A DNA stretch of 64,000 bases, taken from contig NC_133221.1 in the NCBI RefSeq assembly GCF_040436345.1, positions 18,163,165 to 18,227,164 of the forward strand, given 5' to 3'. Of the stretch, positions 28,850-45,000 are shown one piece after another. This DNA comes from Pagrus major (lineage: Eukaryota > Chordata > Actinopteri > Spariformes > Sparidae). The first letter of the stretch is position 1. Each line of letters opens with the position of its first letter. Below the pieces are notes generated by a model. It was given only the letters and a program-made list of their open reading frames with translations. It was not told where the DNA came from and did not search any database. Position numbers and translations under genes: made by a program.

Positions 28850-30206
28850 TCAGTCCCTCAGCAGTAGATAGTCTTTGATAGTCTCTGGTAAAGGAAGCTC
28901 TTTTACAGCAGTAGGGAGGAACTGGACTCCGAGACTCTGTCGGACAGCACAGCGTGCCAGAGAGCGAAGCGTGGGAGCCTGAGCCACCATATTGGTCAGC
29001 CTCGCCAGCAGCTGTGGATCTTTACTCAGCTCTCTGGGAAGGGTGCCGTCAGCCCGTCGGATCTCAAAACGCCCTGCTGCCCGGCACAGCAGCTCCAGGC
29101 ACTCCTCCTCCTGTTCAGTGCCCAGGCCCCGCGCCAACAGGGCCACCAGTCGGGATATAGGGGTCTGGCCCTTCAGGTTGGTCACATGGACCTGGGCTCC
29201 GTAGTCTAATAGCACTTTGACACTCTCCAGGTTGCCCTTCATTGCTGCCCAACTCAAAGGCGTGTCATTGTTGTAGTCCCGTGCGTTGGGACAGGCCCCG
29301 CTCTCCAGCAGGGCCCTCACACACTCTGGGTTGTCTTTGAAGGCGGCCCAGTGAAGCGGGGTGTCCTTGTTGCCATCCAGGGCGTTTGGCTGGGCCCCAT
29401 ACTCCAACAGCAGCTCCACGCAGCTCTCATCCTTCTCCGCTGCATAATGCAGTGCTGTGCGGTTATATCCATCCAAAGCATTCACCTGATGAGGAAATGT
29501 AATGTCATGAGCAATCTCATGCTAAAGAGTTAACAATACACTGACCACAGATTTGGGTGTCAAATGGTTACCTTTTACTACAAAAAACAATCGAATTGTC
29601 ATCATCTCTAAATTTCAGTTTGTATGTCTTCCACTTTTGTCTTTTGGCAACCCCAAATTCATTTTTTCTTTTATTGAACACACTAAAAAACTCATCCTGC
29701 CAACACCTGCAGTGTTCCAAAAAGATCTTGACAAAAATAAAACTGATGGATTACCGGAAACAAGCTTCAGAGCCCTGCAGATTGACTTTCTTAAAATAGG
29801 GTGGCTGTCTGGAAGGTAGTTAATTAATGTAAAACCCTGCTATGGTAAATGGTTAAGTAGAAGTTGTCTATGACATACCTCCGCCCCCTTCTCCAGCAGC
29901 AGCTCCACACAGTCAGCATCAGCGACCATACAGGCACAGTGCAGGGGCTTAAGCGTGCCATGCATCCGGTTCACGTCAGCTCCCTTAGGCATACAGGAAA
30001 TAATGATGTCAATATAACGGGATGACAGTACAACATAGTATTTATTTAAAGTTGGACTGGAAGATGAGCAGGCCTACCTTACGAATGAGATCCTCCACAT
30101 TGTCATGTGGGAATGAGCGGATGGCTGCGATGGTGCGGATGAGCCGCTCGGACAAGGAGTATTTACTTTGAATGCTTTGCATGATGTACCACATAGTAGA
30201 GCTCAT
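28850..30206 (-). CDS. asb8: Ankyrin repeat and SOCS box protein 8
   Basis: Three coding exons: 30078-30206, 29879-29983, 28850-29485; all junctions fall in phase 0. The product is 289 aa (human is 288). It starts MSSTMWYIMQSIQSKYSLSE, followed by four to five ankyrin repeats (for example GYNRTALHYAAEKDE, DGNKDTPLHWAAFKDN, DYNNDTPLSWAAMKGN). The C-terminal SOCS box has a BC-box-like stretch (SLARCAVRQSL), the elongin B/C contact, and a LPLP Cul5-box motif near the end. ASB proteins are substrate receptors of Cullin-5 ubiquitin ligases. An earlier in-frame ATG is absent; the chosen ATG lies 48 bases inside an exon whose acceptor is at 30256-30255. The gene sits between atf7 and larp4, whereas in mammals it is beside PFKM. 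Confidence 0.96.
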
Positions 30207-36013: not shown

Positions 36014-39000
36014 TTACTTTGGCGATACTGGTGGGATATTCTGCTCTTTGCCAGTGTGCCTGTAGCCTCCCTGTGGGGAGCTGCGTCGGGCTGGAGGCGG
36101 GCGCCGCTGGTCCCGAAACTTGAGGCCCCCGGCGCCTCTGGGGCCATTGCTGCGGTAGTAGCCTTGAGTGTCACGTTCACGTGGGGGCCGGCTCTCCTTG
36201 CATTCCCATCCCCCCTCTCTGTCGTGGCCTTTCTCTTGCTTGTCTCCAGGACCGCTGCTGGAGCCCGGCTCCTCAGCCTTGTTCACACGCAGCTCGCGTA
36301 ACGGCTGGCCGGATGCGGTGCCCGAAGAAGCAGGGGCAGGGGCTGCAGGAGGGGGGTCCTTGGGTGGCCGTTGGCACACCTCGGCGTAGCTGAGCTTACG
36401 GGGCTCCTGAATCAAGGCAGGGAAAAAGCACAATTTAAATGACATTCAACAAAAACGTCCATTTATACATATATTTTTCCTCTTTTCAAACCCTCAGATC
36501 TCATAATCTTAACGCTCATCGGGGTAGGAGTGTACGTTTTGGACTTTTGGTGGGAAAGGGAAGAGAGATAAAGACAGAAATATTGAAAGAGAGAGACAGA
36601 CAGAGAAGGAGTGAGAACCAAAGCCAGTCAGTCCACTACCTCACTTCCCTCTATGCGCAAAGTGTTTCATCATCAGGAAGACAACGATGTTCAAGTTTCA
36701 AAGAACCAGAGTCTCACCTGTGTCGGGGTGGGAATAGTGGCTGTAGCAGGGGCTGGCGTGCTGGGTGTTGCTGGCGTGGAGGCAGCAGAGGGCTGAGGCC
36801 TGGTGCTAGGCACGGGCTGTGTGGAGGAGGGGGTGTTCGCGGTAGTTTGAGCAGGTGTGCGAGGAGTCACTTTTGGAGCTGGAGGCTCTGCCCGTTCAAC
36901 CCTCTTCTCCTGACGAGTGATACTGTCAGAACGAAGAGTTTCACACATTCAAGTTACCACTTTAAGTCTTTGCAGGTCTTTCAACCCTAACCAAATATTC
37001 TGAATTCAACTGTTACTTTTGAGACTGTCGTACCCAGGGGCTGAGGATCCAAGTGGTTGTGTAGCAGATTTCGCTGCTGCCAGGGCAGGACTCGAGACAG
37101 CCACAGTCTCCTCTGCAGCCGGGGCTTGGCCTGAAGCTGGACTCACAGTGGCTTCTTTATTGGCTTGTTCAGTCTATAAAAAACAAGGAGGCATGTACAT
37201 TACATCTCAACAATACTCTCAGTGCAGTTTTATCCTGGAGATTTTCAAATTTTTAAAATCTTAACTACTTCTTACCTTGTCCCTGTACAAGCCGCGTACA
37301 ACATCGGACATTCGGTTTTCTAGCACTGGCTCTCCCTGTGTGCTGACAACACAGCCAGGAAGAGGTGGGAAATTGGTAGCAGCCAAGTCAAACTTGGGTG
37401 GAGAAACCTTTACCTCTGCTAGCGGTACCGGCCTCTGAGAAAGGAAATCAAAAATGAAGCCGACAAGCAGAAATATCACAAGATGATTAATGGATTTAAT
37501 GGTTTAAATACGACACAAAAGCTTAAAGGAAATATAAAGTTATTTACCGCAATCCGGTCGTCTTCTCGCCTCCTTCTTGTCCCTCTGTAGGTTGTGCCCC
37601 GTCTGAAATGCAAATAAATTATCACTTGAGTGTCACTGATCAAGTCACAGCCAGATTTTTACAGATGGATAAAACCTTACCTTCCACGTCCAGCCATGCC
37701 GCTGTCATCACTGGGGTCCGAAGAGGAGGAGAGGTGTGAGAACGCTGAGCTCAGATCGGAGGCCGTCTGGACTGGGTTAGTGGTGGCAGCAGGAGCAGGG
37801 GGCTGTGGGCTGCGCAGTCCAGTCAGACTCTCCAAGGGGACAGGAGTTATAGACGCCGAGGTCACCTCACTTGTCCTCACCTGGGGCTTCACGTGGTTTC
37901 TGTCGCAGCAGGGGAGAAGGTGAAAATAAGCAGGGTCAATATGAAGCTGAAAACACTCTTAAGACATACTGGTAACCAGTGTTTCCTGTAGAGCCTTTTG
38001 CTTGTAGGGATCATTTTTGAACTGACCATACTGGTGGTTATTACATCCATTTACATGTAGCAAATGATTTAGTAGAGACAAGAAACATTGTTGACATAAT
38101 GAAACCCATCTTGGTGAACATTTATATTTTACCAATGTTATCATTTGGTGATACATTTTCCAGAAATCGGCAGTTATAGCTACAAAAATCAACTTTCACA
38201 TGTTAAACCACCTGTATGGTCCTAAAAGTGGAGTTTGTGTATGGACATGAATGCTATTGCATGCTATTGCATAAAGAAAACTGCATTGTAATCACAGTGC
38301 TTACAGGAAATAAATTAGAACAGACATTAGTCTGTACAATGCTATTTGTTGGGAGGTCCATCAACTATTTTCAGATAATGGAGGCTGAAGCATCAAAGGA
38401 AACAATGGTGGCACCAGTTTGCTGCAGGAACAAGACAGCATGCTGTGTCCTAGGGGTAAATGTGAAGACATGCAGGACTACGTCTGTGCTTGTGATTGGT
38501 TGAAGCAGCTTTGATGTCAACATACTGTATGTTTGGCAATCTGCAACCAACCACAAACTCATTGAGAAGAGCTGACAACGCCCAGACAGGCTGCTAATCT
38601 TAAAGATTTGAGACAGATATTGTTTGTCTAGCAGCGTGATTCACATGGATCGATCTCATCATGAGTCTTTGACCCTCAGGTCTCATAATCTGAACGCTCA
38701 TCGGGATGAGAGCGGAGCACCTGACTTTGGAAAGGAAGGATGGAGAGAGAGAGAAAAAGAGGAGGAGTAAGAGAGAACCAAAGCCAGTTACTCCACTCCC
38801 TGACTTCCCTCTATGCGCATCTTGCTCTCATCACTGGGTCTGACTTGGGAAGAGTCCACTGAGACATTTCTTTGTGAAGCTGCTTTTTCAGTGTACAAAC
38901 CAATTTACGAAGGTGTCATCTCTTTGCTAAAGATTTTAAGCGCACAATTGAATCCTGACAGCTGGCTGACTCAACTCCAAAGTGTCAGCATTTCATTGTT

Positions 39001-42000
39001 ACAGCATATAACAACACATGGGATAAGGTAATGCAATCACTGACGGAGAAAGCAGCAAAAACAAAAAACCATGAATAAATTAAATGGATGGTTAGTTGTG
39101 ATGGAGAGAAATTGTTACATGTAATAATGTCAAAGCAAAAAGCATTTTTTGGAGCCACGGTGGCCATAACTGGAAGAAGCCAGTTGCTCAGAATCAGATA
39201 GCAGCTGCTGCCGCCATGTAGCAGACAAGCCTACATTTATCAAATGACATGACAAATCCAGGATGTCCATTTTCTGGCAACAAACATTTATCACACTGAT
39301 GAGAAGGATTATGGCGGTACAAAATCTGACTGGCAGAATGCATGGGCCCTGTTATGGATTTAGTCATTTGGCTGCTGCGGTATGGTAAGAGATGAGGGTA
39401 GCGATGAAGCTTATTGTACAGTATAACAGTGGTACCTGAAGGCATTTATTACATTCTTTCTTGAATAGAGGGGGACACTATGGGGACAGTAAGAAGACAG
39501 GGAGTGAAAAACAATTCCCTGCTGAGGTCACATCATCTCAACAGCAGATGATCTGATGTTCACAGTTAAGCATCACCAAAACAAAAGTATTTAAACATTG
39601 CAAATTCATTATGTGTATGCAAATACCACATTTAGATTTAAGCCAAAAGTTAACTCAAATTAACAAATGGCATCTAGAAAAAGAAGACCTTACCGGTTTC
39701 TGTTGAAAGGGCGAGTGATATTAAGAGAACTGGAGCCAGTTTTGTAGTGTCCTGCAGAGCCAAAGCCATTCACAAAGCTGCTGTTGGGAAACGGTGCCTG
39801 CACAGAGGGAGAAAATAAAGAGACACTATTTACAAATCTTTTCACACAAAACGGGTTGTTTATTCAGCAGCTACCACAAGGGCCTGAATATAAATGTACT
39901 GAATTATTTGCGGTGTGTGTTTACTCCAACAGTTGAGAAAACTGAATATTGTGACTTTTGATTTTGTTATGCAAAATATTGTACGTTTATGCCAACTGAC
40001 AACTCAGATAGCTAGAAGAGAAAGACAGATTTGATGAGTGCATGTCTTTTCAGAAGTCACAACAAACAAGGTTGCGGTGAGTAACAAACAAACTCACAAT
40101 ATACATTGAATCGTGTGTGTGTATTAAGTTTGTTTAGCAATAAAACATTTTTTTTTTTTAAATGTAAGCATATTCCTAACCTGAAAATTTAATGGTTAAC
40201 ATTTAGCATTTTCCAAACTGTCCAGACTTTGTACCAACCCTGTAACAAGCAATTTTTTGATGCTGGTGCACAACTTCTGGCTTTAAAAGCTTTGTTATAT
40301 ACACCACATTTGACGCATTTAATACCAATGACACATGGTAACAAAATCCACAACAACTGGAAATGTGCAGTGTAGGTGTATCATGTCTCACCAGAGGAGT
40401 TTCAAAATACGGTGTGGGCGAAGGCGTCCAGGTGGGAGGTACGATGCCATAGACCGGGTACTGCTGCTGAGGGTAGACGTGCTGCATGTAGAGTGGAGAG
40501 CTGTACTGGGACTGGCTCTGGGACTGCTGAGCGTACAGGCTGCTGTCCATGCTACGGTAGCCATTCTTCGCAAAGAATGTGTTGATGGCCTTTATCCTGG
40601 CCTGTTAGCATGACGAATCAGGAAAAAGAGCAGTGAGCGAAATGACTCAAAACAATTTCACAGACGGGCCTTTCCAAAATGACAGCAGAGTATAAAGTCA
40701 ACTCACCATGATGGGTTTTCCCTGAAATGTTTTTACTTCCTCTCTCAAGTACTTGTATGCCTGAGGGAGCAGAAGAAAGAGTCGTAAGGCAATTCATGAT
40801 GCAGCATTTGAACACATCGAGACAAGCCTGATGTGACGTCATTACCTGCTGAGCGTCTGTGTCGGATTGGAATGTGATGTACCAGTTGTTGTTGTGCGCA
40901 AACTCGACACTTATCACCTTTGGACAGTTGTCATTTTTGAACAGTGACTCCACTTCCTGTAAAATGAACACAAAGAATCGTCTCACTTTTCAGGCAACCA
41001 CCACCTACAACCTCATTTTCCAGAGACATGCAGCCTTCAGAGCTAAACATATTGGCTTTACCTCAACAGGTGTGGTTTCAGGGACCTCCCTCAGGATGAT
41101 AATGCACCGCTTGTGATTCGGACGCACTTTTTCCCCTTTCTCGTCCACTTGTACCATAGGCGAGGCTGAGGAAAATTTTAAGTATTTGAATCAAGACCAC
41201 GTCACAAATGTATGCAGATCTTTTTAACGCACAACATCTTAAACTTTCAGCTTACATCTCAACACGTCCAGGATGAGCTCCATGTCCGTGGTGAGGACCT
41301 TGATGCCCTCCATGCTGGCTATAGTCCAAATAGGGACAAACTGGTCGCTGTCCATCTGGGACATCAGGTACAAATCCTTCGAGAGGTTTTCTCTGAATCA
41401 CAGAACAACAAATCCATGTAGATTAGCACCCTCTCGAATTGGGAAAACATCAAAAATTTGACATAAGCGACCACAAATAACGCTTTGAGACAGCATGACT
41501 GGCATGGATCGACCTTCTCATGAGTCTTTGACCCTCAGATCTCATAATCTGAACGCTCATCGGGACGAGAGCGAAGCACCTGACTTTGGAAGAGAAGGAT
41601 AGAGAGAGGCGAGAAGATGAAGAGGAGAAAGAGAGAACCAAAGCCAGTTACTCCACTCCCTGGTCTCCCTCTATGCGCATCATGTTCTCATCATCGGGTC
41701 TGACCTGGGAGGAGTCCACTGAGATATTTCTATGTGAAGCCTGAACAAATTAGCAGGTCGTCATCTCTTTGCTGAAGATTTAAAGCATGTGGATTAAAAC
41801 TTGACAGCTGGCTGACGTAAAGGTGGCTCGGGTGCTCGGCTCTTACCGTGAGAAATAAAACTCCAGCTCTTTCTTCAGGGACTCTCGTAGATTCTCGGAG
41901 GAGACCGGCTGCTCTTCAGTTTTGGACTCCACTGAGAATCAAAAACAAAATGTCAGCGACAAGAAAAGTGACAACATGCTTTTATATCAAGTGAGTGTGA

Positions 42001-45000
42001 ACCAGTACAATCAGTGGCCATTTAATCTTTAAAAACCTTTTGAACTTTAATGCAATCTAATACAACCGTTGTGCCATAAAGTCTACTTTAATCACAATGT
42101 TGAGTCTCTGTTGACACCGTCAGAGGTGTTCGTTCAATCATGGTTTATCTGATAAGGTTGTCCTGAAATAAGGATTTTCAGTCAGCACTTGTTGTTGCCT
42201 GTTGTGATTTTTCAGTTAATGCCTTTTCTTATCTGCAGATATTTATCGGCTTTATAAACACTCAACATTATTACCGATCTTGTTTATTTAATACAACCTA
42301 CCTACGAATATGAATAATATATATTTTACTCCCCTGCCCAGTTTGTGTCAGTTCAGTGCCACACCGAAGCTTACACAAGTCTGACGTGTCACCTTCAAGA
42401 CCCACGTTTTAACCTTTGTTAATCATCTGTTATGTGAAAACAGACTTCCACACACACTCAAGGTCACACTGGACAAGCAGTAGAGGAGGTTGTACCAGGT
42501 AGTTTGGAGCGACTTCACTGAGAGCAGCAGTGCAGGCAACACACACGAGTCAAGCTGCCCTGGACTCTGAAGTTTACAGCCTGTCATGCCATTACTCCTA
42601 CACTGCACTGTGTACAATGACACAGCAAAATAAAAAATGTTTCATGGTCACGACCGTGTGCTTTCATGAACATGTGCCATATGTTTAACTGAAAGTCTTA
42701 TTTGTGTGAAAACTTCTTGAGCGGAGGATGCAAGATGAACTTTAGTGTAAACTAACATTAAGTTGTATTGTATCCGTCTTTGACCCTCAGATCTCATAAT
42801 CTGAACGCTCATCGGGACGAGAGCGAAGCGCCTGACTTTGGAAGAGAAGGATGGAGAGAAGAGAAGATGTAGAGGAGAAAGAGAGAACCAAAGCCAGTTA
42901 CTCCACTCCCTGGTCTCCCTCTATGCGCATCTTGATGTCATCACTGGGCCAGACTTTTCAGTGTATGAACAAGTTTGCAAAGTTCAACCCTCTGCTTAAG
43001 ATTTAAAGCGTACGGATTAAAGTTTGACAGCAGGCTGGTCAAGCCGTTGCTCCTACACTGCTCTTTGTACAATGACGCAGTTTAAAAAAAAAAAAAAGGG
43101 CAGGGATTAGACGGTCAAAATGCGGGCGACTCTGGGTTTCCTCAACTGATGCTGCCAATCACTGACTTACATGGGGCAGCTTAAATCATTGACATCACAG
43201 TTAGTGGTGGTGTTGTAGTGGACCATGTTACATATCAGGTGTCTTCTTAAATGGAAAGACATTTGCAACACCTCTCAATATAATAACGCGTAGTTAAACA
43301 CCACTTTGTAATTCACGACCGCAATAATAAACAGAATTGAATTTACAAAAACTGAACATTATGAACTTTAAGGTAACCTCTATGGCAGGGCTGTGGTATT
43401 AGACTGCAGGTGAATATAATAAAAGTGGCCTCGGGGTTAAAGTTTCCACAGTATGTTTACCAAACAACTACAACATTATTATTAGGATTACTTGGCAGTG
43501 ACAACAAGCCATCTTAACCACATTATGTTTTACTCGCTCTGAGCATGACAAGAATGTAGGCGGCTTCATTACTTTAAAACCAGCCGTGCTATGCAAAGTA
43601 TTATTAAATAATGAGTAGTACTGAGCATGTGAAAACAGTTATGTAATATTACTTGTGGCTTTACAGTGGCTGTAGTCGGTGGCTCCAAAGTCTAACAAAA
43701 TAACCTTTATGATGACATCATCAGCGGACAATAAAGTCAAGTAGAGCCATGCGGCCTGGAGAGCCAGGTGACAACATGTTTTCATTCCTTTCGAAGAATC
43801 CACTCTTATCCAAACTTTATCATTTAGATAATAACGAGGAATAAATCCGAAGCTGCAGTCTGTGGAGACGACTGCATGTGATGTGACGCGACTGACCTGA
43901 GGTCCCTGTTGTGGACTCAGCGGGGGAAAATCCCAACTCTGGAGGGTCCATTCCATTTACTGCTATCTCAGCTGTTGCTGTGGAGCTGCTGTCATCCAGG
44001 GCCGTGAATCCCACAGTGTACTGCTTGCACCCAGCAGACAAAGGCTCAGAATAACCTGCAGACAAGGTGAAGAGTCCCATTCAGAACCAGCAGCAGATCG
44101 TTTTTAGGGCTGCGTCACCATCATCTATTCTGAATGTCTGTGTGTCCCGGTGTGCGGCTTAAGTTTAGATGTATACAAACGTCAAGGAAAGGGGTAAAAA
44201 ACAACTTGAGATGAGTACTTAAGGAAATATTTTGTTTTGAGTATTGAGTCAATAGATATACCTGTAAATGACCAGTTTTTATATTATAACAAATCAGTTG
44301 GTGCATCTTACCCTCGCTGATGTCTGAGGGGGGCCAATGAGGGCTGTTGGTAACGGCCTCGCTGGAGGCAACAGGCATCTCCTGCCACACCTTGGCATTT
44401 GGGTTCAAGCCGGCGCCCTTAGAGGTGACCTTCAAAAGCAGAAACAGCAGGATCAGGAGAGTTCAATGTGTAACATTCAAATGAATGACGTGTATTTCAG
44501 CACAAAAACAAAAGTGTCAATTAACCAAAGTAGACTTCTGCAATTTGATGTTCAATTATGTTCAGAGATTTTAAAAGGCAACTGATGTGCTTTAGCTGCA
44601 CTTGAGACCGACACTACGTCCAGCATCATGCATTTAATATTCTCGCTGATTCACCTCAGACTTGCAGTCTCATCTCTGCTTGGCATCACACTCGTCCAAC
44701 AGACTGTCAGAATTTAAGATGTTGAACTCTGAACTATGCCAAACCATTATCGCTCATTTATCTAACAATGTCAACACACTGAGTTACTTTTGATATCCAA
44801 AAATTAAACCCTGAGCAGCAGCACCGAGCACATCTTCAAACCATTAAGTAAACCTAATCGTTGTGAGGTGTCAGAAACAATGACCTTAGGAAATCTATGA
44901 CCATCAAGGTGGAAATCTTTGGGGAACATAACTTTAGGTACTTATGACAAAGGACTTGGAAAATACAAAAGCTAAACAAGAAAAACACTCAAGAAACTAA

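What the first reader, a model, noticed from the sequence alone, without database searches (positions are those of the whole stretch)
36488..42950. Four-copy family of C/D-like RNAs in larp4 introns
Four ~170-190 nt sequences in introns 3, 4, 10 and 15 share blocks that are better conserved than surrounding intron. Each, on the host sense strand, begins with an RUGAUGA C box and ends with a CUGA D box. In copies B, C and D the flanks pair as GACCC/GGGTC (GGCCC in D, kept by a G.U). They are longer than ordinary box C/D snoRNAs (70-100 nt) and I cannot match them to a known one. Possible roles are an unusual long snoRNA or scaRNA, or an RNA regulating its host.
Basis: partly seen in the sequence, partly recalled or inferred. 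Interest (0 to 1): 0.72.

Follow-up and report, generated by a model that had tools for sequence, protein, structure and literature searches.

The report
Four fish copies of SCARNA97
Four related sequences in the introns of a fish larp4 gene look like copies of a known guide RNA, SCARNA97, which directs a chemical mark onto the anticodon of the methionine transfer RNA used in elongation; a sister guide found elsewhere in the same genome appears to have lost its targeting sequence.

Summary
Four sense-strand copies lie in larp4 introns, each with an RUGAUGA C box, a CUGA D box and, directly before it, AGAUUAUGAGAU (C for the last U in B). Rfam SNORD97 matches B, C and D full length but below its cut-off, and does not match A. 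Against this fish's own tRNA-Met(CAT) genes (20 of 38 matches read), the fifth nucleotide before the D box faces C34 in all four copies; 15 positions pair in B, C and D, 12 in A. The 87-96% pyrimidine stretch resembles the human Cajal-body signal. Copy B is, by exon count, in the human intron; the other three are extra. The one credible SNORD97 found, in eif4g2, keeps its 5' block and terminal stem but not the tRNA guide, and none was found in the eif4g2 paralogue. So C34 methylation here, if it occurs, may rest on the larp4 copies. No expression data. New member of a known kind.

The parts
36487..36680 (-). Copy A, SCARNA97-like C/D RNA, larp4 intron between E15 and E16; C box 36667-36673, D box 36494-36497, guide 36498-36509 (12 pairs to the tRNA-Met anticodon arm), pyrimidine-rich stretch 36551-36617 (87% C/U)
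   Evidence: 80 nt from the chosen 3' end to the 3' splice site. No Rfam SNORD97 hit
38669..38842 (-). Copy B, SCARNA97-like C/D RNA, larp4 intron between E10 and E11 (by count the intron that holds human SCARNA97); C box 38828-38834, D box 38676-38679, guide 38680-38694, pyrimidine loop 38731-38777 (96% C/U)
   Evidence: Rfam RF01291 28.2 bits, full length, below cut-off; PMC6601510
41528..41702 (-). Copy C, SCARNA97-like C/D RNA, larp4 intron between E4 and E5; C box 41688-41694, D box 41535-41538, guide 41539-41553, pyrimidine loop 41590-41637 (94% C/U)
   Evidence: Rfam RF01291 31.5 bits, full length, below cut-off
42781..42951 (-). Copy D, SCARNA97-like C/D RNA, larp4 intron upstream of E4; C box 42938-42944, D box 42787-42790, guide 42791-42805, pyrimidine loop 42842-42887 (94% C/U)
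   Evidence: Rfam RF01291 34.5 bits, E 0.0047, full length, below cut-off
36014..41931 (-). Host gene larp4, exons E4-E16 (La module in E4-E8)
   Evidence: a spliced open reading frame with GT donors and AG acceptors; bounds were chosen to keep the frame open, and E13-E15 are the least certain; La domain 74.6 bits; PDB 6i9b La-related protein 4, E 3.4e-97

Best explanation
The four elements are intron-encoded box C/D RNAs, members of the vertebrate SCARNA97 (SNORD133) family. Each is probably released from the spliced larp4 intron and bound by the box C/D proteins. It base-pairs, through the 12-15 nt before its D box, with the anticodon arm of elongator tRNA-Met(CAT), so that fibrillarin methylates the 2'-O of wobble cytidine C34. 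The pyrimidine-rich loop is the likely Cajal-body localisation signal. Copy B is probably the ancestral gene; A, C and D are duplicates within the host gene. Shown here: sequence, boxes, pairing register to this fish's own tRNA genes, host gene and intron positions, pyrimidine-rich stretches. Inferred: processing, RNP assembly, methylation, localisation, direction of duplication.
For: Full-length Rfam SNORD97 matches on the right strand for 3 of 4 copies. PMC6601510 (parts 1-3 of 4 read): SCARNA97 lies sense in LARP4 intron 10, is 216 nt, has a 93-nt pyrimidine-rich internal stretch needed for Cajal-body targeting, and guides C34 together with SNORD97. That paper's printed SCARNA97 FISH probe, read as its complement, contains AAGATTATGAGATCTGA, which occurs in copy A; C and D have AGATTATGAGATCTGA, B AGATTATGAGACCTGA. 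Of 38 tRNA-Met matches in this genome, the 20 fetched as loci were read: 19 share GTCTCATAATCTGAAGG and the twentieth (L031, gene on the other strand) shows its complement. ARAGORN calls tRNA-Met with CAT at 34 for one representative of each of the six distinct sequences. Guide position 5 faces C34; positions 1-15 pair in B, C and D and 1-12 in A (register printed for the commonest tRNA sequence; the paired stretch is the shared one). Pyrimidine stretches 87-96%; the best 60-nt windows, 0.85-0.88, lie in the top 0.02-0.13% of all windows on this strand.
Against: All Rfam scores lie below the family cut-off of 45 bits, and copy A has none. No pair with changes on both sides among the four copies; the shuffle control is not exceeded on any measure. 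Whole-copy folding energy is not significant for D or A. Copy A's terminal stem is short and it lacks the long hairpin of B-D. No RNA data, so any copy could be silent. A pyrimidine-rich loop is also present in this fish's SNORD97 (72 nt, 85%), so it does not by itself mark the Cajal-body form.
Confidence: 0.94

Rival explanations
1. Only one or two copies (for example B, or C and D) are functional SCARNA97 genes; the others, copy A especially, are decaying duplicates.
For: A is 76-79% identical to the others, lacks the long hairpin, has a weak terminal stem and pairs over 12 instead of 15 positions.
Against: A keeps a C box, a D box, a guide in the right register and an 87% pyrimidine stretch, and its 3' end lies 80 nt from the 3' splice site. 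A drifting pseudogene would be expected to lose these.
Confidence: 0.35
2. The copies are SNORD97 rather than SCARNA97, that is nucleolar guides that moved or were copied into larp4.
For: The only snoRNA family that Rfam matches to them is SNORD97; B, C and D have TTCAGATTATGAGA where the human SCARNA97 probe implies TAAGATTATGAGA.
Against: Host gene and, by count, the intron of B are those of human SCARNA97; an eif4g2 intron still holds a separate SNORD97. No separate SCARNA97 family was matched, so SNORD97 may simply be the nearest model in the library.
Confidence: 0.04
3. An orphan or host-regulating intronic RNA unrelated to tRNA methylation, or a transposon family.
For: Multi-copy, and a long internal hairpin in B-D.
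Against: All four share a guide that fits C34 in the required register; genome-wide DNA similarity was found in larp4 only.
Confidence: 0.02

Closest known systems
SCARNA97 (SNORD133), human LARP4 intron 10 (PMC6601510)
   Same: Host gene, sense orientation, by count the same intron (copy B), C and D boxes, D-box guide for C34 of elongator tRNA-Met, long pyrimidine-rich internal region
   Different: Four copies instead of the single human gene described; 171-194 nt instead of 216; pyrimidine stretch of 46-67 nt against 93 nt in human; in B-D it is a loop on two helices of 11-12 and 10 bp
SNORD97, human EIF4G2 intron 13 (PMC6601510; Rfam RF01291)
   Same: Overall architecture, guide sequence, D-proximal AUUAUGAGAU.UGAGGG, a pyrimidine-rich internal region
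   Different: Different host gene; this fish's own SNORD97 candidate (L007:1501-1670) has lost the guide

Membership tests
SCARNA97 | C box RUGAUGA near the 5' end, D box CUGA near the 3' end, closed by a terminal stem | tested here: met
   boxes in 4 of 4; stem of 5-6 pairs in B, C and D, only 3 pairs in A
SCARNA97 | D-box guide whose fifth nucleotide faces C34 of elongator tRNA-Met(CAT) | tested here: met
   on 20 of this genome's 38 tRNA-Met matches
SCARNA97 | Encoded in sense in a LARP4 intron (human intron 10) | tested here: met
   for the host gene; the intron number is contingent on exon 1, which was not located; human intron number from PMC6601510
SCARNA97 | Long pyrimidine-rich internal region | tested here: met
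   shorter than in human, and also present in this fish's SNORD97
SCARNA97 | Stable RNA in Cajal bodies, associated with WDR79/coilin and fibrillarin | not testable with these tools
   no RNA or protein data
SCARNA97 | C34 methylation depends on it | not testable with these tools
   shown for human cells in PMC6601510
SNORD97 (Rfam RF01291) | Score at or above the gathering cut-off of 45 bits | tested here: not met
   B 28.2, C 31.5, D 34.5 bits, A none; nothing at gathering level
SNORD97 (Rfam RF01291) | Located in an EIF4G2 intron | tested here: not met
   the copies lie in larp4; the eif4g2 candidate is L007

The most novel reading that the evidence does not exclude
In this fish the two-guide system of vertebrates (nucleolar SNORD97 plus Cajal-body SCARNA97) has been rewired. 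SNORD97 has lost its tRNA-Met guide while keeping its 5' conserved block (AUUAUAAA, AAGACGCGUUAUU) and terminal stem, so it presumably serves another target, and all C34 methylation has passed to SCARNA97, amplified to four copies in larp4. PMC6601510 excepts only bird SNORD97 from the rule that the guide is invariant, so this would be a second loss.
Probability: 0.37. Interest if true: 0.52.

Novelty: new member of a known kind. Interest (0 to 1): 0.36.

Why it matters
It identifies an element that Rfam at gathering level misses, so annotations of fish genomes that rely on that library probably lack it. It gives a natural test of whether the nucleolar and Cajal-body guides for C34 are interchangeable: here the nucleolar one appears to have lost its guide while the other multiplied. 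A SNORD97 that keeps its conserved 5' block without the guide hints at a second function of that RNA.

Tried and rejected
Unknown C/D family: rejected after the permissive Rfam scan and the tRNA match. Transposon: rejected, four places only by DNA similarity (best candidates only). Covariation: none; on all five measures the shuffles reach the observed value in 500 of 500. Folding of whole copies: D z -1.26 (25 of 200 shuffles fold as well), A z +1.36 (185 of 200), not significant; B and C were folded without a control. Longest helix around a pyrimidine-rich loop, dinucleotide shuffles at least as long, then shuffles of the 3' part only, of 300 each: A 9 and 185; B 0 and 6; C 0 and 3; D 0 and 5; L007 1 and 41.

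Other genome sites of AGATTATGAGATNTGA, one each on C13, C14 and C16: the reversed control pattern had 0 and 17 matches on the two strands, so three extra sites are within chance. None has a SNORD97 match. R1 gives a 7.6-bit match (E 0.25) at the C16 site (L021), none at the guide sites of the other two. The C16 site has an AUGA box after the guide and a TGATGATGA about 35 nt before it; I take it as chance, but a very short guide RNA there is not excluded. RF01291 whole-genome search: 5 hits, none over the cut-off; L007 is kept, L008 and L009 are copies D and C, L010 (partial) and L011 (27.9 and 26.8 bits) were dropped as chance because they lack the guide and the L007 features. That search scored 47 of 188862 candidates, did not report copy B although it scores 28.2 bits, and gave sub-cut-off hits in 8 of 14 prokaryotic control genomes; so a further diverged SNORD97 could have been missed. 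Not answered and therefore not done: a search for larp4 paralogues and a DNA search with the SNORD97 of L007.
Full report
What is there. Four related sequences lie on the minus strand, the sense strand of the host gene, at about 36487-36680 (A), 38669-38842 (B), 41528-41702 (C) and 42781-42951 (D). Each has an RUGAUGA C box near its 5' end and a CUGA D box near its 3' end. The terminal stem has 5 pairs in B and C, 6 in D (one G.U) and 3 in A. C and D are 94% identical, B is 90% identical to both, and A is 76-79% identical to the others. The cores are better conserved than most of the flanking intron. The motif AGATTATGAGANCTGA occurs four times, all exact, where shuffles give 0.27 on average and at most 2.

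Host gene. Splice sites can be chosen that give a continuous reading frame over 13 exons, E4-E16 (the bounds of E13-E15 are the least certain). Its La module matches La-related protein 4 in the PDB (6i9b, E 3.4e-97) and the Pfam La domain. A lies between E15 and E16, B between E10 and E11, C between E4 and E5, and D upstream of E4. Exons 2 and 3 were assigned by eye from translations and recalled similarity to LARP4; exon 1 was not located, so the intron numbers rest on a count.

Identity. At gathering level Rfam finds nothing in the window. With a permissive threshold the best hits are SNORD97 (RF01291), full length and on the right strand, for D (34.5 bits), C (31.5) and B (28.2); the family's cut-off is 45 and A is not hit. 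The paper that explains this is Vitali and Kiss 2019 (PMC6601510; parts 1-3 of 4 read). Human SNORD97 lies in EIF4G2 intron 13 and SCARNA97, formerly SNORD133, in LARP4 intron 10. Both guide 2'-O-methylation of wobble cytidine C34 of elongator tRNA-Met. SCARNA97 is 216 nt long and has a 93-nt pyrimidine-rich stretch needed for Cajal-body location. A 2025 human interaction map also reports hybrids of both RNAs with tRNA-Met-CAT (PMC12645875, one passage read).

Target test. This genome gave 38 matches to elongator tRNA-Met; the 20 that came as loci were read, six distinct sequences, one of them on the other strand. ARAGORN calls tRNA-Met (CAT) with the anticodon at 34 for one representative of each. 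In register, printed for the commonest of these sequences, the fifth nucleotide before the D box faces C34 in all four copies. Positions 1-15 pair without a break in B, C and D, and positions 1-12 in A; position 1 is a G.U in A, C and D and a G-C in B. The tRNA stretch concerned is the same in all 20.

Internal region. Between the arms of an internal hairpin lie 46-48 nt that are 94-96% pyrimidine in B, C and D; the corresponding 67 nt of A are 87%. In B-D helices of 11-12 and 10 bp carry this loop; A does not fold so. The parts of the paper that I read describe the pyrimidine stretch, not such a stem. No covariation can be claimed from four close copies.

The sister guide. A genome search with RF01291 gave one other credible hit, L007 (36.6 bits, full length, below cut-off), on contig C8. 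Neighbouring open frames read as eif4g2 (assignment by recalled similarity), and the RNA lies in the intron between two of its exons. Its 5' part is nearly identical to the family consensus, including AUUAUAAA, AAGACGCGUUAUU and the closing UGCCC/GGGCA, but the guide is gone: where the consensus reads AAGAUUAUGAGAUAUGAGGGCA this RNA reads AAGUGUAGGAUGAGGGCA. In 9.9 kb around it no guide was found within 2 mismatches; two sites with 3 mismatches lie elsewhere, as chance would give. The eif4g2 paralogue on contig C4 has a cognate intron of at most about 125 nt, and no SNORD97 match, guide motif or 5' block within 9.9 kb; R1 gives only a 9.0-bit match there, on the strand opposite to that gene. 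Genome-wide, AGATTATGAGATNTGA has six exact sites: larp4 A, C and D, and three on C13, C14 and C16 that are within chance; B has C in place of the T and falls outside that pattern. The paper says that apart from bird SNORD97 all candidates keep the guide. So this fish seems to be a second case of loss. The caveats: one assembly was read, the family search scored few of its candidates and missed copy B, and other fish could not be examined.

Mechanism and probability. Most likely (0.94) the four elements are SCARNA97 genes that guide C34 methylation of elongator tRNA-Met after release from larp4 introns. Processing, RNP assembly, methylation and location are inferred from the human work. Whether all four copies are active is open (0.35 that some are not). 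That the larp4 copies carry the whole task because SNORD97 lost its guide is the most novel reading (0.37).

Literature. One search found 39 papers with SCARNA97 or SNORD97 (30 listed); others (6 papers; 5; 11, 10 listed; 43, 10 listed; 534, 10 listed) added combinations with LARP4, SNORD133, zebrafish, chicken, EIF4G2 and fish. In these listings (titles and abstract starts) I saw no paper on multiple larp4 copies in fish. The supplementary figures of PMC6601510, which by its text show vertebrate homologues, were not available and may include such copies.

Noticed in passing
L007:1501-1670 (G000:C8:21285517-21285686): SNORD97 candidate in an eif4g2 intron with conserved 5' block and terminal stem but without the tRNA-Met guide before the D box.
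   Followed up: partly
window 42583-42637 and 43038-43092: Direct repeat of 55 nt, 82% identical, on both sides of copy D; origin unknown, perhaps part of the duplication history.
   Followed up: no
G000 contigs C2 (19.26-19.35 Mb), C24 (20.855-20.861 Mb), C5: 38 matches to elongator tRNA-Met: 27 on C2, 10 on C24 and one on C5.
   Followed up: partly
window 28850-29521 (-): Open frame of 223 aa with ankyrin-like repeats, resembling an ankyrin-repeat and SOCS-box protein by recall; not tested.
   Followed up: no
window 38669-38842, 41528-41702, 42781-42951: In B, C and D two helices (11-12 bp and 10 bp) present the pyrimidine loop; L007 has a 9-bp stem of different sequence around a similar loop.
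   Followed up: partly
L021:1468-1516 (G000:C16, around 15759585): A chance-level copy of the guide followed by AUGA, with TGATGATGA about 35 nt upstream; too short for a usual C/D RNA.
   Followed up: partly
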